From: Candidatus Gastranaerophilales bacterium
GTDB taxonomy: Bacteria; Cyanobacteriota; Vampirovibrionia; Gastranaerophilales; JANQFW01
Direction of reading: 5' to 3'
DNA: 36,077 nucleotides
NCBI GenBank assembly: GCA_028282645.1
Contig: JANQHM010000176.1
Coordinates: forward strand, 1 to 36,077
The notes beneath the pieces are model-generated. The model searched no databases and was not told the DNA's origin. It saw nothing but the letters and a program-made list of their open reading frames with translations. Positions 4 through 36,077 of this stretch are shown here, piece after piece (the stretch's first letter is position 1; every line of letters starts with the position of its first letter). The translations under genes were made by a program, and so were the position numbers.

Positions 4-104
4 TGATAATGATTTTATCAATGTTAAACCCTCCCTAGTATACATATACATGAGGAAGGTTCTTTATTCAAGTACTTTTTTTTCTTTGCTATATCTCTAA
101 ATAA
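4..104. repeat. Terminal inverted repeat, left copy
   Basis: Bases 4-104 match the reverse complement of the last ~101 bases of the window (35977-36077) with two mismatches, at 57 and 100. Reading outward on the minus strand it contains GGGAGGGTTT followed by a TTG that could begin a reading frame (MIKSLS...) outside the window. Finding the same sequence at both ends in opposite orientation suggests a dispersed repeat that stopped assembly. An IS end or an invertible-segment boundary is also possible. Confidence 0.85.
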
Positions 105-6011: not shown

Positions 6012-6644
6012 TTAATTGGACTTTATATCATTTATACCCGCTTTCATAAAGCTTACTGATCTATTCACAAGTTGATCTATCTGTTCTTTGCTTGGCTGTT
6101 CGCTGCCAAATAGCTTATGTTTTACACCTATACCTTTGCATAAGAACATAGTTTGAGCTATTACTTCCATACAACAAAAGTTAACGTCAAATTCATCTGC
6201 ATCATTACCAAGCAAGCCTTTCATTATATTTTTAATGATTTGATAATGGGGTTCTAGCACATTTTTCATAATATAATCTTTAACTTCTAATGTATAAGCT
6301 ATATTTTCTTCATTTGATAATATTTTGTAGAACCAGCTGTCTTTTTCGTTACTAAATATTGAAGATAATCTTGATCTAACCAGTTCGGTTAGTTGATCTT
6401 CCGGCTTATATTGTTTTATATTTTTTAAAAATTTATATACATTGGTAAACTCATAAGCTTTAACGCAGGCTTCTTTAAACAAGTTTTCTTTATTTCCAAA
6501 GTAATAGTTAACAGAAACCTGATAAGTATTTGCTTCTTTACAAATATCCCTAATTGTAGTAGATTTATAGCCTTTTTCCGCAAATAGCTTACAAGCAACT
6601 TCCAGAATTTCTTCCCTAGCGTTTTTTTCTAAAATTTCGTTCAT
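6012..6644 (-). CDS. TetR/AcrR-family repressor of the efflux operon
   Basis: First gene of the efflux operon and probably its autoregulated repressor. I start it at 6644 (MNEILEKNAREEIL, 210 residues). The 22 extra codons of the longer frame would be translated from the promoter and operator. The N-terminal helix-turn-helix is clear: ILEVACKLFAEKGYKSTTIRDICKEANTYQVSVNYYFGNKENLF, with the YYFGNKE signature of the family. The C-terminal ~150 residues form the ligand and dimerisation half and resemble the TetR_C (CerR/YbiH) type, with hydrophobic helices and EVIAQTMFLCKGIG. The ligand cannot be predicted. Confidence 0.93.
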   Translation of the reverse strand: MNEILEKNAREEILEVACKLFAEKGYKSTTIRDICKEANTYQVSVNYYFGNKENLFKEACVKAYEFTNVYKFLKNIKQYKPEDQLTELVRSRLSSIFSNEKDSWFYKILSNEENIAYTLEVKDYIMKNVLEPHYQIIKNIMKGLLGNDADEFDVNFCCMEVIAQTMFLCKGIGVKHKLFGSEQPSKEQIDQLVNRSVSFMKAGINDIKSN

Positions 6645-7077: not shown

Positions 7078-7183
7078 GAAGGGTTTTTTATAATTTATTC
7101 AACTTTAGAGGGAGAAAGCTTTTTTTGATTAAATTAACAAAAAGTTACTTAAATATAAAATTAATATATATATTAAAAATAAA

Positions 7184-7215
7184 AACAAAAGACAGGAATA
7201 GGTCCCTGTCTTTTG
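7184..7215 (-). terminator. Intrinsic terminator of the first pilin-like gene
   Basis: On the minus strand GCAAAAGACAGG and CCTGTCTTTTG form a hairpin around an eight-base loop, followed by a T-rich tail. It lies ~50 bases past the stop of the 7263 gene. An almost identical hairpin follows its paralogue at 9082. Confidence 0.85.
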
Positions 7216-7262
7216 CATTTGTAAGTAATTTTATATGGTGTATTTAAATATTACATACTAAC

Positions 7263-8942
7263 TTATGGCTTGATCCCAGTCCTTTCATTGATGTTATTAG
7301 TGCCGTTTGGTTTATCTTTATAATCAGACGAGTCAGTAGTATTCATAGGGTCAGTAGTATCATTAAGGTCATCAGGGTCAATAGAATCAGGTGGCATTTT
7401 TTCTGGTGGAAGTTGATCAACAACCTCAACCGGTTTTTCGTATGCTTTAGGGTCAATTACACATATATTATTTTCTTTTTTTCCATTGAGAGAATCGCAT
7501 AGGGCATCGTTATTATAACTACCTGTAAATATTTCAAAGAAGTTACCTTCTAAATATACTTCTATTTTTTTTGCAATATCATCTTTAACTTCTTGACTTA
7601 TATTTGGGTCATTATAAATTTCTTCTAATTTTTCTTTTATAGCTTTTAATTTAATAATATTGTTCGTTGTTGTATCAGGGTTAGTAATAATATTATATCC
7701 GTTGTTTATAACATCATAGGTACAGCCCCATCCTGTAGTATTACATGTACCTTCATGTTCTGTACCCGGAGCCCCCATTGGGGTTATTCCTGTTGCTGTA
7801 ATTTCGAACCCGAAAAAGTCAACCCCCATATTCTTGTCCTCAAAACTATCTACCGGTCCATTAGTTACCCATAAATTATAACTGCCAGAAGTATTTTTTG
7901 AACCTAGGTACATTTCTTGTCCGTTTGCAAATTTAAACCAACCATTCCATAATTCTTGTGTTATGGACATACTACGCGAGTCCTTTTGTTTTACTGTAAA
8001 AGGAGTGTCATAGCTGGCCTTATCCTCTATATAGGAAACAAGATCAAACTCTTTTTCATCTAAGTAATCCCTAAGTATACGATCAAAGAAATCTTTTTCA
8101 TTAATATCTATTGAACCATCTTTATCGATGATGGTTGCAGAAAGCAGCTGTAACCTATCCCAGCCTTGGATAAAAGTTGTTGTGTCTATACTATCGGCTG
8201 ATGATTCTTCTGGTAAAGATTCAACAATCTCAACAATTTCTTCTAATATTGTTTCTCTACTGTCGATTGTATAAGTAAGCTGTTCACCCATTTTAAGTAA
8301 ATCTTTTGTATAAGTTTTTAACAAACTTTTTTCCGGACCTTCTGGTAGTTGATTAAGAATCTTATTTAACTCTGTATATAAATCTTTTGCAACATCACCT
8401 TCTTTTTTTAAATCTACTGCAATATCCAGATCGTTAATTACTTTAAGCAATGGATCATTTTTTCCACTAACAGTGGCTTCGTCTTTTAGTATGTATTCGT
8501 CTATTGTGTCATTATATATTTTTAGTGCCTGATCTAATCCTGAAGTATGAATATTAGTAGTTTCAGTTATTTTTTGAATTTGAGCAATATATTTTTTGGC
8601 AATATAAGCAAGGTCTTTCATGTTACCGGCGGAACCGTTAGTTTCAATTAACTTTCCACCACCTGAGCTACTTCTTATATAGGCTTCAATAGGTGTTTTT
8701 AAAACCTGGCCGCTAAGAGTTAATTCAGTATTTGTTAATAAACTGGGACTTACTTTGGGAATATCAGCTCTACTGGAATTTGATTCAAACATAGCTAATT
8801 TGCCTTTATCCTGGAATATATTTGAAATGTTATCACCAAAGAGAGCAAAAGAAAAAAATCCGACCAAAAGCACCCCTGCGGTAATTAGGCCTATTTCTGC
8901 AGGAGTGGAGCCGTTTTTGTACTTAAAGTTTTTAATACACAT
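7263..8942 (-). CDS. Large Flp/type IV pilin-like secreted protein (paralogue 1)
   Basis: A 559-residue protein with a pilin-type N-terminus: a short basic leader (KNFKYKNG), a processing site G|STPAE with Glu at +5, and a ~20-residue hydrophobic helix (IGLITAGVLLVGFFSFALFG) ending DNISNIF as in Flp pilins. A prepilin peptidase would be expected to cut after the Gly. Unlike 50-60-residue Flp pilins it carries a ~530-residue extracellular part. This is helical at first. Around residues 330-410 comes a pilin-fold-like segment (WFKFANGQEMYLGSK, GVDFFGFEITATGITPMG, CNTTGWGCTY), then a Cys pair (ALCDSL and NICVIDP) and a Pro/Asp/Thr-rich tail. Ribosome binding site AAGGAT. It is the downstream member of a tandem duplication. 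It could be a minor pilin, adhesin or surface filament subunit. No assembly ATPase or peptidase is nearby. Confidence 0.75.
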   Translation of the reverse strand: MCIKNFKYKNGSTPAEIGLITAGVLLVGFFSFALFGDNISNIFQDKGKLAMFESNSSRADIPKVSPSLLTNTELTLSGQVLKTPIEAYIRSSSGGGKLIETNGSAGNMKDLAYIAKKYIAQIQKITETTNIHTSGLDQALKIYNDTIDEYILKDEATVSGKNDPLLKVINDLDIAVDLKKEGDVAKDLYTELNKILNQLPEGPEKSLLKTYTKDLLKMGEQLTYTIDSRETILEEIVEIVESLPEESSADSIDTTTFIQGWDRLQLLSATIIDKDGSIDINEKDFFDRILRDYLDEKEFDLVSYIEDKASYDTPFTVKQKDSRSMSITQELWNGWFKFANGQEMYLGSKNTSGSYNLWVTNGPVDSFEDKNMGVDFFGFEITATGITPMGAPGTEHEGTCNTTGWGCTYDVINNGYNIITNPDTTTNNIIKLKAIKEKLEEIYNDPNISQEVKDDIAKKIEVYLEGNFFEIFTGSYNNDALCDSLNGKKENNICVIDPKAYEKPVEVVDQLPPEKMPPDSIDPDDLNDTTDPMNTTDSSDYKDKPNGTNNINERTGIKP

Positions 8943-8969
8943 AATATAATCCTTTTCATTATCATGTTT

Positions 8970-8990
8970 CTATAGTTTATATTCCCAAAA
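8970..8990 (-). promoter_or_regulatory. Conserved promoter-proximal box of pilin-like gene 1
   Basis: A 21 bp stretch (minus strand GGGAATATAAACTATAG at its centre) is identical to one upstream of the paralogue at 11069-11089, at a similar distance from the start codon (~28 bases). Surrounding bases are less conserved, apart from a shared A/T-rich block. It probably holds the -10 region or a regulator site. Which one cannot be decided here. Confidence 0.55.
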
Positions 8991-9081
8991 ATTTGATTTT
9001 TTAAACATTTTTTTTGATTAAATTAACAAAATGTTACCTGAGTATAAAATTAATATATGTATTGCAAATAAATAAATAATA

Positions 9082-9121
9082 AAAACAAAAGACAGGGACC
9101 TATTCCTGTTCCTGTCTTTTG
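9082..9121 (-). terminator. Intrinsic terminator of the second pilin-like gene
   Basis: Reading the minus strand, GCAAAAGACAGGAACAGG pairs with CCTGTCTTTTG, allowing a small bulge, and is followed by a T-rich run. The hairpin is nearly the same as the one at 7184. The flanking bases are also alike (TTTGATTAAATTAACAAAA upstream in both), so the terminator was copied with the gene. Confidence 0.82.
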
Positions 9122-9136
9122 CAGTTATAAGTAATT

Positions 9137-11041
9137 TTATTGTGAAGCCTGTATATTAATATTTACATTATTCTTGTCATTGTTGTTTGGATTAACGGTA
9201 GAGTCAGGAGCAATATTTGTACTATCATTAGGATTAATTGGTTTCACACTAGTTGTATCAATAATCTCTGGTGGCATTATATCGATAACAGGTGGCGAAT
9301 TAATAATATCTGTGGGCGGAGTATCAATAGGCTTGCTATAAACATTAGGGTCAATAACACATTTGTTATTTTCTATAGTTCCCTGCAAGGTACTACATAA
9401 GGCATCGTTATTGTAACTGCCTTTAAATACTTCAAAGAAATTACCTTCCAAATATACTTTTATTTTTTTAGCAAGATCTTCTTTTGTTTCTTGAGCAATA
9501 TTTGGATCATTATAAATTTCTTCTAATTTTTCCTTTAATTTTATTAAATTTTGATATTTAAGAAGTGTTGTACTTGTACTACTGAATGTATTGTTGTTGG
9601 ATAATTTAGCCATGTCACTGGTACATCCATATCCGGTAGTGTTACATGTACCCTCATATTGTGATCCCGGATCTCCCATAGAAATTATACCTGTTGGAGT
9701 TACTTCAAATCCAAATAAGTCGGTTCCGATAGTCATAGGGTCAGTAGATGCAGTCAATGTTACCCAAAGTTTATGATAGCCGGTAACAGGATCTTTTGTA
9801 CCTACAAACATTTCTTGTCCGTTTGAAAATTTAAACCAGCCATTATATGTTTCTGTCGAACCGGTGAATATTTGAATATAACTGCTGCTGCTACTACTGC
9901 TTGATGATGATGAACTTGAACTGCTAGAGCTTGCACTGCTTGATGATGAGCTTGAACCGTTACCTGAGCTGCTTGCACTGGCACTACAAGCAGTTGTGGT
10001 ATTTATATCTACAATATCTCCACTTGCGCTTGCAATACAGCCGTTTGTAGCTCCATATGCATATATTGATGACTCTACAAGATCAAATTCTGATCCGGTT
10101 AAGTAATTTTTTAGATAGTCATATGCGTAGTCTGGAGGCGTAATTGTAACTTCAGTAGCTATAATAGTATCAGATAACAAGTTTAACCTGCCTATACCTT
10201 GTCCAAAAATATTAGTAAGGCTAGTGTTAACTAGTGTAGAAGAAGATGGGGTTGTATCATTTAAAGCAGGGTCAGTATTGGCACCGGTTGTAGTAGTGTC
10301 TTGAGCAGTATCATTTATAACTAGCTCAATTATTTCTTCATAAAGCAGTTGTTTGTTTCTGCTATCTACAAAATAAGTAATCTGTTTGCCCATATTTAGT
10401 AAATCATTTACATATGTTTTTAAAATAAATTTTTCCGAACTATCAGGTAATTGATTAAGGGTACTATCCAATTCTTTTGATAAAATTTTTGCGGCATCAC
10501 CTTCCTGTGCCAGGTCTATAGCAAAATCCAGTTCATTAATTATTTTAATCAGAGGATCTTTTGTACCGCTAACTATTGAATCATCTTTTGCTATATATTC
10601 ATCAACAATATTATTAAATGACTTTAATGCATTATCCAGACCCGAAGTATCAGCATTAACTCTTTTAGAGTTTTCTTGAATTTGAACTATATAATTTTTT
10701 GCAATATAAGCAAGGTCTTTCATGTTACCTGCAGATCCGTTTGTTTCAATTAAATTGCCTCCTCTGGAAGTACTTCTTATATATGCTTCGACAGGAGTTT
10801 GCAAAGACTGATTATTTAAAAATACTTCAGTGTTTGATAATAAATTGGGGTTAACATTAGGAATGGAAGCTCTGCCTGAATTAGATTCAAACATTACTAA
10901 ACTGCCATTATCTCGAAAAATTTCTCCAATGCTACCACCAAAGAGGGAATAAGCAAAAAAGCTTACTAAAAAAATTCCGGCTGTAATTATACCAATTTCA
11001 CCTATGTTGGAGCCTTTTTTGCAGTTAAAGTTATTACGCAT
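9137..11041 (-). CDS. Large Flp/type IV pilin-like secreted protein (paralogue 2, poly-Ser)
   Basis: Paralogue of the 7263 gene, 634 residues. It has the same leader and processing site (CKKG|SNIGE), hydrophobic helix (IGIITAGIFLVSFFAYSLFGG), helical middle (ETNGSAGNMKDLAYIAK is shared) and C-terminal module (WFKFSNGQEMFVGTK, GTDLFGFEVTPTGIISMGDPG, CNTTGYGCTSD, ALCSTLQ...CVIDP). The tail is Pro/Asn/Thr-rich. It differs mainly by an insertion of about 60 residues before the conserved module. That insertion has a Cys pair (GCIASAS...TTACSAS) and then a run of about 25 serines broken by single Ala or Gly-Asn-Gly. Such tracts act as flexible, often glycosylated linkers in surface proteins; that role here is inference. 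Ribosome binding site AAGGAT. Confidence 0.75.
   Translation of the reverse strand: MRNNFNCKKGSNIGEIGIITAGIFLVSFFAYSLFGGSIGEIFRDNGSLVMFESNSGRASIPNVNPNLLSNTEVFLNNQSLQTPVEAYIRSTSRGGNLIETNGSAGNMKDLAYIAKNYIVQIQENSKRVNADTSGLDNALKSFNNIVDEYIAKDDSIVSGTKDPLIKIINELDFAIDLAQEGDAAKILSKELDSTLNQLPDSSEKFILKTYVNDLLNMGKQITYFVDSRNKQLLYEEIIELVINDTAQDTTTTGANTDPALNDTTPSSSTLVNTSLTNIFGQGIGRLNLLSDTIIATEVTITPPDYAYDYLKNYLTGSEFDLVESSIYAYGATNGCIASASGDIVDINTTTACSASASSSGNGSSSSSSSASSSSSSSSSSSSSSSSSYIQIFTGSTETYNGWFKFSNGQEMFVGTKDPVTGYHKLWVTLTASTDPMTIGTDLFGFEVTPTGIISMGDPGSQYEGTCNTTGYGCTSDMAKLSNNNTFSSTSTTLLKYQNLIKLKEKLEEIYNDPNIAQETKEDLAKKIKVYLEGNFFEVFKGSYNNDALCSTLQGTIENNKCVIDPNVYSKPIDTPPTDIINSPPVIDIMPPEIIDTTSVKPINPNDSTNIAPDSTVNPNNNDKNNVNINIQASQ
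9881..9957 (-). repeat. Poly-serine coding tract in pilin-like paralogue 2
   Basis: The run uses AGC, AGT, TCA and TCT codons in mixed order, not one repeated triplet. It is therefore not a young slippage microsatellite, and the serine content is probably kept by selection. The paralogue lacks it. Confidence 0.85.
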
Positions 11042-11068
11042 AATATTATCCTTTATAATTTTTATGTC

Positions 11069-11089
11069 CTATAGTTTATATTCCCAAAA
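11069..11089 (-). promoter_or_regulatory. Conserved promoter-proximal box of pilin-like gene 2
   Basis: Identical over 21 bases to 8970-8990 and placed the same way upstream of the paralogous gene. Followed upstream by a similar A/T-rich block (AAACATTTTTTTT on the plus strand). Confidence 0.55.
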
Positions 11090-11181
11090 TTTTAAATTTT
11101 TAAACATTTTTTTTTATTAAATTAATAAAATGAAACATTTCTTTATAAATATTATTTTGGTACCTATTTTATGAATACTTG

Positions 11182-13007: not shown

Positions 13008-13296
13008 ATAATACCTCCTACCTTGTATACCTTATCTTTTATGCCTTAAATTACCATTTTTGATTAAAGATAACAGTTGCATAATTCTTTTATAGTTATA
13101 ATAGATATTTATTAAAATCTTATTTCTACAAAACCAATATCTATCATTTCATTTAAAAAATTTACTAGCGTTATTATACTGTTTCCAAAGTCAATTTTAG
13201 ATTAATCTTTATAAACACTGTTGAATAATCTGAAAAGTATTTTAGAGATAGTATACAGCCTGTAACAACTGTTGAAATTTTTACACATTTTTAAGT

Positions 13297-14672: not shown

Positions 14673-14889
14673 TAATAAACAAAGGCTATTCATTTTATAC
14701 TAATTCAAAAATAATTTTCAGATTATTTAATAGTGTTAAAGCTGATAAAATAAGCTATTCGTCTGAATTGCGAAGCGGGAGCGTTAAAAAGTGAAATGGT
14801 CAATTTTACTTTTTATAAGCTCATTTAAAGAGAAATCTGAAATTTAATTGAGGACCAGTATAATTAATGAATGGCTTTTGTTTTTATTA
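14673..14889. repeat. ~215 bp segment bounded by imperfect inverted repeats
   Basis: ACAAAGGCTATTCATT at 14679-14694 pairs with AATGAATGGCTTTTGT at 14866-14881. The arm extends to over 20 bases with a 2-base bulge. The two internal mismatches become G-U pairs in the plus-strand RNA. The segment encloses R1 copy B. It could be a miniature element or a structured 3' UTR. Confidence 0.55.
14741..14862 (+). repeat. 3'-flank repeat R1, copy B
   Basis: Contains GCTGATAAAATAAGC, then TTGCGAAGCGGGAGCGTTAA, then AAATCTGAAATTTAATTGAG. Starts ~90 bases after the stop of the 14184 gene, in the same orientation. It is longer than copy C because of a 40-base insert (AAATGGTCAATTTTAC...) that shares GCTCATT with copy A. 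Confidence 0.82.
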
Positions 14890-16929: not shown

Positions 16930-17012
16930 AACTAATAGAATAAACTATTTTTTGAATTGCGAAGCGGGAGCCTTAAAAAGTGAAGTCTGAAATTTAATTG
17001 AGTACCTGTATA
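16930..17012 (+). repeat. 3'-flank repeat R1, copy C
   Basis: Contains TTGCGAAGCGGGAGCCTTAA directly joined to AAGTCTGAAATTTAATTGAG, lacking the middle insert of copy B. It starts within 20 bases of the stop of the quadruple-GntR gene, in the same orientation, and is followed by the terminator at 17027. Confidence 0.82.
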
Positions 17013-17026
17013 AAACATCCGAATGA

Positions 17027-23625: not shown

Positions 23626-24098
23626 TATATTTTTATCTCCACTAAAAAAGCTCTAAAAAACACTTTACTTACCTCATAACAAAAATACGCAAAACATACT
23701 AATATGTAAAGAGATTAATATTAATTTTAATGCTAATAACTAAATTGTAAAAATTTTACTACAGAGTTATACTTCAATTATTTTAACTATAACTTAAACA
23801 GAGTTTAAATTATAAAAAAACATATTTTCTAAGGTAAAGATTTCTCTAAAACCACTTTACAAAAGAATTAATATTGTTTTTAATAAAAAAGATTATTTTT
23901 TTATTAATAATAATCTTTAAATTTGCAAACGCAGACCTCTGAAACTTAATAGTATACTCCCTCAAAAATACTTTTCAGATTCTTTAATCAGATAGTAGTT
24001 AAAAACTCTTCAAAGATAAATAAAAAAATTTAGACAATAATTAATATTCAGTATCTTTAATAATAATGACGAATAATGTAGAAAAGGGTAGGAATTTA
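23626..24098. other. Divergent intergenic region, activase and symporter
   Basis: AT-rich, with no reading frame. AAAGATTATT (23888-23897) and AATAATCTTT (23909-23918) form a 10 bp AT hairpin that is followed by a T-rich run on the minus strand, so it could be a weak leader terminator for the activase. CTCTGAAACTTAATAGTATACTCCC near 23936 resembles the tail of the R1 repeat. Otherwise nothing is seen. Confidence 0.35.
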
Positions 24099-26968: not shown

Positions 26969-27060
26969 GGTAATGGTCATCACTTTTTTTATCTCATAGC
27001 TACAAGCTTTAATAGAACTTAAGTTTGATTAAAAATATCAAAATTCGATAGACCACTACC
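26969..27060 (+). repeat. Miniature element R2, copy a
   Basis: A 92 bp segment starting GGTAATGGTCATCAC and ending GACCACTACC; the ends are inverted repeats with one mismatch in 10. It aligns along its length with 32782-32879 (AGCTACAAGCTTT, ACTTAAGTTT, CGATAGACCACTACC). It lies between divergent genes. No clear target duplication flanks this copy, which suggests an older insertion. Confidence 0.75.
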
Positions 27061-32093: not shown

Positions 32094-32786
32094 ATGAGCA
32101 AAAAGGGTTTATTTATAACATTTGAAGGTGCTGACGGCTGCGGTAAATCAACGCAAATGGAGAAAATTACACAGTATTTGTTATCAAAGGATCTTGAACT
32201 TATGGTTACAAAAGACCCGGGCGGTACTGATTTAGGTAAAAAATTAAGAGAAATATTACTCGGATACAAGGGTAAGATTTATGAAAACTGCGAGCTATTC
32301 TTGTATCTGGCCGATAGGGCGCAGCATATTGATGAAAAAATAATCCCTGCTTTAAAACAAGGTAAAATAGTGCTTTGTGACAGATATATTGACTCTACCC
32401 TAGCGTATCAGGGATATGGCCGGGGTTTGGATAAGGATAAAATATTAGAGCTAAACAATATTGTTTCGCACGGGTTAATCCCGGACTTGACCTTATATTT
32501 TGATGTTGATACTGAAATTGCAATGCAAAGAATCGGTAATGATAAGGATAGGTTAGAATCTGAGGGCATTGAATTTTATAAAAAAGTACGCGAGGGCTTT
32601 TTAGACCTTGCTAAAAAACAAAAAAGAATTAAAATTATAGATTCTGCTCAGGATATAGAAAGCGTTTTTACGCAGGTTAAAGCTGAGATAGACAAATTTT
32701 TAATTCCCGGTAAAAATAATAGATCTTTAGATAAGGGGCAACTTCTTAGGCAGAACCTTAGAAAAGCAGATTCAAAAAATAGGTGA
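32094..32786 (+). CDS. tmk: Thymidylate kinase
   Basis: 230 residues. It converts dTMP to dTDP with ATP in DNA-precursor synthesis. Seen: P-loop FEGADGCGKST (10-20), DPGGTDLGKKLREILL, ADRAQH, the DRY-type motif CDRYIDSTLAYQGYGRG, and the LID with DRLE. The ~20-residue Lys/Arg-rich C-terminal tail (NNRSLDKGQLLRQNLRKADSKNR) is beyond the normal family end. The last Arg codon and the stop come from an inserted R2 element. Removing the element and one target copy gives ...DSKNICSRE before a TAA. Ribosome binding site is weak (AAGGTAA). Catalysis should be unaffected. Confidence 0.96.
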   Translation: MSKKGLFITFEGADGCGKSTQMEKITQYLLSKDLELMVTKDPGGTDLGKKLREILLGYKGKIYENCELFLYLADRAQHIDEKIIPALKQGKIVLCDRYIDSTLAYQGYGRGLDKDKILELNNIVSHGLIPDLTLYFDVDTEIAMQRIGNDKDRLESEGIEFYKKVREGFLDLAKKQKRIKIIDSAQDIESVFTQVKAEIDKFLIPGKNNRSLDKGQLLRQNLRKADSKNR

Positions 32787-32879
32787 TGGTCATCACCTTT
32801 CTTATCTTATGGCATAGCTGTAAGCTTTTGATATAACTTGAGTTTACTTGTAAGCATCAGTACTCAACTGACCACTACC
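32782..32879 (+). mobile_element. Miniature element R2, copy b, with 9 bp target duplication
   Basis: A 98 bp element beginning GGTGATGGTCATCACC and ending GACCACTACC, with imperfect terminal inverted repeats. Perfect 9 bp direct repeats CAAAAAATA flank it at 32773-32781 and 32880-32888. Its interior aligns with 26969-27060. It carries no gene. The GGTGATG start and 9 bp duplication recall IS1-family ends, so a non-autonomous IS1-like element is possible; that family call is tentative. Confidence 0.82.
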
Positions 32880-32913
32880 CAAAAAATATATGCAGCAGAG
32901 AATAATAAGTATC

Positions 32914-33378
32914 CTATTCCCTACTATGATTGAATAAGCTGTTACCGTGAGAGTCAACCACTATTGATGTATTAACTTGACCAAATCCCGCAATAGTATC
33001 GTTTACTTCTCTTAGTTCATTAACCGATTTTACTACGACTTTTAGCATAAAATCATTAGTACCGGTGATTCTTAGGCATTCAACAATTTCCGGTATTGTT
33101 TTGACCAGCTCTACAAACTTTTTTTCCTGAAATCCGAATATACCTGAAATATTTACCAGGATAACTGCCATAATGTTTAAATCCAACGATTCATAGTTTA
33201 CCTTGATAGTGTATTTATCTATAATACCCAAATCTTCAAGTTTTCTTACTTTATCTGCTACTGTTGAAGATGATAAATTTACTATTTTACCAATTTCTGT
33301 ATATGAAATTCTTGCGTTTTCTTCTAAAAGGGCAAGGATTTTTAGTGAAGTATCATCTATTTTAAAATTTAGTGTCAT
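32914..33378 (-). CDS. Lrp/AsnC-family transcriptional regulator
   Basis: I start it at 33378 (MTLNFKIDDTSLKILALL, 154 residues), because the longer frame to 33447 runs through the promoter. N-terminal winged helix: DDTSLKILALLEENARISYTEIGKIVNLSSSTVADKVRKLEDLGIIDKYTIKVNYE, the standard AsnC helix-turn-helix. The C-terminal RAM effector domain follows (AVILVNISG, VECLRITGTNDFMLKVVVKS). It would form dimers or octamers that sense an amino acid. Divergent from the Asp/Glu racemase gene with a 115 bp shared regulatory region, so it may control racemase expression in response to its amino acid. Confidence 0.92.
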   Translation of the reverse strand: MTLNFKIDDTSLKILALLEENARISYTEIGKIVNLSSSTVADKVRKLEDLGIIDKYTIKVNYESLDLNIMAVILVNISGIFGFQEKKFVELVKTIPEIVECLRITGTNDFMLKVVVKSVNELREVNDTIAGFGQVNTSIVVDSHGNSLFNHSRE

Positions 33379-33418
33379 TTTTAAATATTCCTTTATTTTT
33401 AAGGTAAAAAACAAAAAT

Positions 33419-33447
33419 ATTATATAAATTCGGGTAGTTTTAGTCAA
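33419..33447 (-). promoter_or_regulatory. Sigma-70-type promoter of the Lrp gene
   Basis: On the minus strand TTGACT (33447-33442) and TATAAT (33424-33419) are separated by exactly 17 bases. This is close to consensus. It sits 40 bases before the chosen start codon and supports the shorter protein. Confidence 0.8.
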
Positions 33448-35833: not shown

Positions 35834-36050
35834 ATAATATTCTTATGTTTTCCCTGTTTTTTGCTGTTTCAATCACATAAGCAATAATATCAGGGCAAAT
35901 AGCCCATTTTGAGCTTTCAGCTTGTTCAATATACTTGCATTCAAGACCAGACTCCTGACCTGTTACATATAGAAGATTATGTAGAGATATAGCAAAGAAA
36001 AAAAAGTACTTGAATAAAGAACCCTCCTCATGTATATGTATACTAGGGAG
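35798..36050 (-). CDS. Possible 3' part of an unknown gene running through the right repeat
   Basis: A minus-strand open frame without a normal start runs from inside the right terminal repeat: ...GSLFKYFFFFAISLHNLLYVTGQESGLECKYIEQ, then AESSKWAICPDIIAYVIETAKNRENIRILFNK. It ends inside the fumarase 3' end. The part after the repeat is protein-like in composition. The left copy of the repeat leads into a different continuation, so the repeat may have truncated this gene. Not recognised; low certainty. Confidence 0.3.
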
Positions 36051-36077
36051 GGTTTAACATTGATAAAATCATTATCA
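35977..36077. repeat. Terminal inverted repeat, right copy
   Basis: This is the inverted partner of bases 4-104. In this copy CCCTCCT and GGGAGGG flank a TGTATATGTATAC centre, giving an imperfect hairpin. The AGGGAGGGTTTAACA stretch followed by TTGATAAAATCA looks like a ribosome binding site and start codon of a gene that runs off the right end. Its identity cannot be told from six codons. Confidence 0.85.

What the first reader, a model, noticed from the sequence alone, without database searches (positions are those of the whole stretch)
32773..32888. Miniature element R2b inserted in the end of tmk with a perfect 9 bp target duplication
CAAAAAATA flanks a 98 bp segment with GGTGATGGTC...GACCACTACC ends. 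Removing the segment and one repeat restores a frame reading DSKNICSRE then TAA, whereas the present gene ends DSKNR within the element. This is direct evidence of transposition and of a coding end remodelled by a MITE. The intact duplication implies a recent event.
Basis: partly seen in the sequence, partly recalled or inferred. Interest (0 to 1): 0.75.

Follow-up and report, generated by a model that had tools for sequence, protein, structure and literature searches.

The report
IS1-type miniature transposon ending tmk gene
A 98-letter parasitic DNA element without genes of its own, one of about 180 copies in this gut-type cyanobacterial relative, jumped into the last codons of a DNA-synthesis gene and gave it a new stop signal; it is a new family of a well-known kind of element and is probably moved by an IS1-type transposase.

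Summary
Window 32782-32879 is a 98-bp element flanked by an exact 9-bp direct repeat (CAAAAAATA), and tmk ends inside it. It belongs to a large family: 183 left-end matches (at most 1 mismatch) in the 3.11-Mb own genome, 0 in the reversed control. Of 87 full-length copies with flanks, 44 have an exact 8-bp and 6 an exact 9-bp target duplication (about 1 and 0.2 expected). For another copy, removing the element plus one duplication gives a repeat that occurs uninterrupted elsewhere. The likely mover is an IS1-family transposase: a resident IS1 fragment ends in the same ACCACTACC, and full IS1 copies in relatives carry similar ends and 8-bp duplications. The host is a Candidatus Gastranaerophilales genome; the family is rare in its one congener and in one genome of another family, and unseen in 283 others. 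The effect on tmk is small: the last 5 residues of a non-conserved tail are replaced by one, and the kinase domain is intact. An exact empty tmk site could not be found, because the congener lacks the element but has diverged there. Recency is not specifically supported. A new family of a known kind, of modest interest.

The parts
32782..32879 (+). Miniature element, 98 bp; variant of the 93-bp family consensus with a 5-bp CTTAT duplication also seen in congener copy L210
   Evidence: 93% identical to consensus; 183 left-end matches in own genome
32773..32781 (+). Target duplication, left copy CAAAAAATA
   Evidence: family statistics
32880..32888 (+). Target duplication, right copy CAAAAAATA
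32782..32791 (+). Left terminal inverted repeat GGTGATGGTC; contains the TGA stop now used by tmk
32870..32879 (+). Right terminal inverted repeat GACCACTACC (= GGTAGTGGTC on the other strand, 8 of 10 like the left); last 9 bp identical to the end of the resident IS1
32781..32798 (+). Self-complementary left end AGGTGATGGTCATCACCT (7-bp stem, 4-nt loop), terminator-like by pattern only
32094..32786 (+). tmk, thymidylate kinase (Pfam PF02223 over residues 10-194); last codons replaced by the element
32914..33447 (-). Convergent Lrp/AsnC-type regulator gene downstream of the insertion
26969..27060 (+). Second, older copy of the family (75% to consensus, no exact duplication); absent at the orthologous place in the congener

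Best explanation
A non-autonomous miniature inverted-repeat transposable element of about 93-98 bp with no coding sequence, mobilised in trans by an IS1-family (DDE, InsA/InsB-type) transposase that recognises GGTRRTGG-type ends and makes staggered cuts giving 8 bp (sometimes 9) duplications of AT-rich target. One copy inserted 17 nt before the pre-insertion end of tmk (its stop included). The element carries a stop codon at positions 3-5 of each end (TGA left, TAG right), so a gene it enters in that frame is closed at once, and tmk lost only its last few non-conserved residues. Shown: element, family, duplications, a related empty site at another copy, intergenic bias, IS1 in the genome and its shared end. 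Inferred: that IS1 transposase is the mover, and that the tmk tail before insertion read ...SKNICSRE.
For: 135 exact matches to a 16-position left-end pattern and 183 with at most 1 mismatch to an 18-mer, 0 in reversed controls. 92 full-length copies among the DNA fetched, mostly 93 bp; exact 8-bp duplications in 44 of 87 and 9-bp in 6. AT-rich, roughly symmetric target. Related empty site: L028 copy against uninterrupted repeat in L006, joined exactly at CTTATTTT. IS1 transposase fragment in own genome (NF033558 E 1.6e-22; PF03400 E 4e-16) whose stop runs straight into CCACTACC. Complete IS1 in relatives: 797 bp with GGTAGTGGCT ends and duplication TCAATTTT, and 805 bp with duplication GAAAAATG. 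59 of 68 testable copies intergenic, about 50 of 68 random points genic. The congener lacks the element after tmk. IS1595 absent; IS256 and ISL3 fragments lack these ends.
Against: No complete IS1 in this draft genome (the fragment starts at a contig edge, and its 5' half was not found). Sequence shared with IS1 is limited to about 9 terminal bp at the right end; the left end GGTGATGGTC differs at two positions from GGTAGTGG ends. No exact empty site for tmk itself. About 40% of full-length copies show no exact duplication.
Confidence: 0.85

Rival explanations
1. The element is a MITE, but moved by a transposase of another family (IS256, ISL3, IS1595 or an unassembled IS) that also makes 8-9 bp duplications; the IS1-like end is coincidence.
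For: Left end differs from known IS1 ends; the resident IS1 is only a fragment. IS256 and ISL3 fragments exist in the genome.
Against: IS1595 not found. No GGTGATGG/GGTAGTGG ends beside the IS256 or ISL3 fragments. 9-bp identity with the resident IS1 end, the same 8-bp AT-rich duplication in relatives' IS1, and the same end in the congener's IS1 remnant.
Confidence: 0.12
2. A conserved functional repeat (RNA, protein-binding or terminator element, REP/ERIC-like) kept by selection, with duplications by chance.
For: Self-complementary, terminator-like left end; intergenic bias; RNA fold slightly better than shuffles (z -2.05 for the consensus).
Against: 44 + 6 exact duplications against about 1 expected; related empty site; no Rfam match to the element; no enrichment between convergent genes (16 of 59 against 24% of random intergenic points); absent from 283 order members.
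Confidence: 0.02
3. The element is a MITE as described, but the former tmk end was not ...SKNICSRE: later changes on either side of the insertion altered the flanks, and the frame that appears on removal is a chance one.
For: Tail beyond about residue 203 has no counterpart in the congener (tmk ends LVSKDITIIS) or other relatives.
Against: The frame is open up to the insertion, so some stop after the site was used before; the duplication is still exact, and simple removal gives TAA 5 codons on.
Confidence: 0.15

Closest known systems
IS1 family insertion sequences (InsA/InsB', DDE transposase)
   Same: Shared terminal ACCACTACC with the resident IS1; 8-bp duplication in two complete relatives' copies; AT-rich target; GGT..TGG-type ends
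   Different: No transposase gene; 93-98 bp rather than about 800 bp; left end GGTGATGG; homology limited to the ends
Bacterial MITEs such as Correia (Neisseria) and Chunjie (Geobacter), as reviewed in PMC10969869
   Same: Short, non-coding, inverted ends, target duplications, mostly intergenic, many degraded copies; copy number in the range of Correia (>120) and ERIC (150-711)
   Different: Smaller than the full-length Correia (204 bp) and Chunjie (235 bp) elements; IS1-type ends; a host order where my literature searches found no MITE report
Rickettsia palindromic elements (as described in PMC10969869)
   Same: Can alter the ends or products of genes they enter
   Different: RPEs insert in frame and are read through; this element closes the frame at once (TGA/TAG at positions 3-5) or after a short tag

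Membership tests
MITE (non-autonomous transposable element) | Short, no transposase gene | tested here: met
   98 bp; a stop begins within 53 nt of either end in every frame
MITE (non-autonomous transposable element) | Terminal inverted repeats | tested here: met
   GGTGATGGTC / GGTAGTGGTC, 8 of 10
MITE (non-autonomous transposable element) | Target duplication of fixed length | tested here: met
   8 bp in 44 and 9 bp in 6 of 87 copies; control means 0.92 and 0.23
MITE (non-autonomous transposable element) | Empty sites showing insertion | tested here: met
   Related empty site for another copy (L028 against L006); not available for the tmk copy
MITE (non-autonomous transposable element) | Many interspersed copies | tested here: met
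   183 left-end matches in 3.11 Mb, control 0
IS1-derived MITE | Ends shared with an autonomous IS1 in the same genome | tested here: inconclusive
   Right end shares 9 bp with the resident IS1 fragment; left end of that IS1 not assembled
IS1-derived MITE | 8-9 bp duplication as made by IS1 | tested here: met
   Complete IS1 copies in relatives have 8-bp duplications; MITE 8-9 bp
IS1-derived MITE | Mobilisation in trans by IS1 transposase | not testable with these tools
   Needs an experiment
IS1 family insertion sequence | Encodes InsA/InsB transposase | tested here: not met
   No room for one: 98 bp with stops in all frames; it is at most a derivative

The most novel reading that the evidence does not exclude
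The element acts as a portable gene end: its self-complementary left end (terminator-like) and end-placed stop codons let it land in the last codons of genes and replace both stop codon and transcription terminator with little cost, which would help explain its spread to about 180 copies in one species.
Probability: 0.1. Interest if true: 0.5.

Novelty: new member of a known kind. Interest (0 to 1): 0.3.

Why it matters
It documents a large, lineage-restricted burst of an IS1-type MITE in Candidatus Gastranaerophilales, an order for which my searches found no MITE report. The family-wide duplications and a related empty site give clean evidence of transposition. It also shows a recurrent mild outcome: insertion in the last codons of genes, which changes the C-terminus by a few residues (tmk and at least three others). 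For annotators, gene ends and assembly breaks in this lineage may be shaped by this repeat.

Tried and rejected
Exact empty tmk site: congener region lacks the element but cannot be aligned at the site; the tmk and post-element flanks have no other convincing match among the DNA fetched. 5' half of the resident IS1: not found in own genome, nor other copies of its right end. Other parent families: IS1595 none, IS256 and ISL3 fragments without matching ends. Known RNA: no Rfam match in the element. Promoters: none beyond chance in the region and none inside the element. Copies in phages, plasmids or viral contigs: none. L135 and L003 were tried as extra empty-site examples: the L135 self-match is a second partial element copy and the L003 alignment does not cross the site cleanly, so only L028/L006 is used. 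L037 was first counted as an insertion inside a gene; I now read its stop as lying inside the duplicated target, so that gene is unchanged. L129 has an imperfect duplication, so its inferred pre-insertion end is approximate.

Full report
Observation. The sequence at 32773-32888 is as described: CAAAAAATA, a 98-bp segment with ends GGTGATGGTC and GACCACTACC, CAAAAAATA. tmk (32094-32786, Pfam thymidylate kinase over residues 10-194) ends ...ADSKNR*, its TGA being element bases 3-5. Taking out the element and one repeat gives ...ADSKNICSRE*. A second, degraded copy lies at 26969-27060 (75% to the consensus).

Family. The window is one whole contig of a 3.11-Mb, 307-contig genome. Relatives found through tmk are named Candidatus Gastranaerophilales. 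A 16-position left-end pattern matches 135 times in the own genome and never in the reversed control; an 18-mer with at most one mismatch matches 183 times. Of 123 distinct elements in the DNA I fetched, 92 are full length and 68 of the 87 with usable flanks are exactly 93 bp. Mean divergence of 93-bp copies from their consensus is 3.6%, and between copies 6.4%, as expected of copies made from one or a few sources. The window copy is a 98-bp variant carrying a 5-bp CTTAT duplication that also occurs in congener copy L210.

Target duplications. Among 87 copies, 44 have an exact 8-bp and 6 an exact 9-bp duplication; shuffling the flanks between copies gives means of 0.92 and 0.23. The tmk copy is one of the 9-bp minority, or 8 bp plus a chance C. 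Targets are AT-rich and roughly symmetric.

Empty sites. Some copies sit in another repeat family. For L028, removing the element and one CTTATTTT gives a sequence matching an uninterrupted copy in L006 (90% over 153 bp; alignment). This demonstrates insertion. For tmk itself there is no such comparison: the only congener (tmk 83% identical) has no element there, and its tmk ends LVSKDITIIS*, so it is an absence but not an exact empty site. At the second copy the congener also lacks the element and carries a different repeat in the same intergenic space.

Effect on genes. Of 68 testable copies 59 are intergenic (2 more could not be placed), while about 50 of 68 random points in the same DNA fall inside ORFs. 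ORFs were called by a simple script, not a gene finder. The 7 scored as inside genes all lie within 26 nt of a gene end. Examples: L171 changes the last residue only; L017 and L026 gain 11 and 6 residues, using the element's own ...GQLS(T/I)DAY(K/R) reading; tmk loses 4 net. Each end of the element has a stop at positions 3-5. The intergenic bias is best explained by selection against gene disruption (inference). There is no excess between convergent genes (16 of 59, against 24% of random intergenic points), which argues against a role as a terminator, although the left end is self-complementary and terminator-like.

Mover. IS1 was tested because of the duplication length and ends. The genome has one IS1-family fragment at a contig edge whose stop codon runs into CCACTACC, so that it shares the last 9 bases with the element. 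The congener has a short remnant with the same end. Complete copies in relatives are 797 bp (G009, ends GGTAGTGGCT/AGCCACTACC, duplication TCAATTTT) and 805 bp (G021, duplication GAAAAATG). IS1595 was not found, and the IS256 and ISL3 fragments lack such ends. The left end of the resident IS1 is not assembled, so derivation from IS1 is likely, not proven.

Distribution. With the same search the congener has 20 matches, one genome of another family (G025) has 14, and 283 other genomes of the order have none. Many congener matches are one copy carried along inside a larger multicopy repeat. The G025 elements are 71-78% identical to the consensus against 37% for shuffled sequence, and two of them (L194, L205) show 9-bp duplications by eye. 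The high copy number is therefore specific to the window's lineage. The distribution searches used the left end, so copies with diverged left ends are missed. No match was found in phages, plasmids or viral contigs.

Literature. A review of prokaryotic MITEs (PMC10969869) gives no hit for the word IS1 and lists families with comparable copy numbers. A search on Gastranaerophilales and transposition found no MITE report. The library is limited, so this is weak evidence of novelty.

Verdict. It is a new family of a known kind.

Noticed in passing
window 13214-13255, 14696-14863, 16953-17013, 23952-23987: A second high-copy repeat of roughly 100-150 bp (AAAATACTTTTCAGA ... AAAGAGTAATCTGAAATTTAATT); 42 distinct contexts of its core in 0.32 Mb of fetched own DNA. 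It looks like another miniature element and is itself a target of the tmk-type element.
   Followed up: partly
window 26969-27060 and L217 about 6440-6540: The same intergenic space holds the tmk-type element in this genome and the second repeat family in the congener.
   Followed up: yes
window 4-104 and 35977-36077: Both contig ends carry the same 101-bp repeat in inverted orientation (also seen in L016), so the contig appears to be broken at a repeat.
   Followed up: no
L195, L198, L201, L204, L208, L213 (congener G001): One element copy (GGTGATAGTC variant) sits inside a larger multicopy repeat and appears to have been copied with it at least six times; similar repeats without the element occur in L119 and L186 of the own genome.
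   Followed up: partly
window 7120-9142 and 9009-11155: Two neighbouring regions about 1.9-2.1 kb apart share long stretches at 70-86% identity, probably a tandem gene duplication.
   Followed up: no
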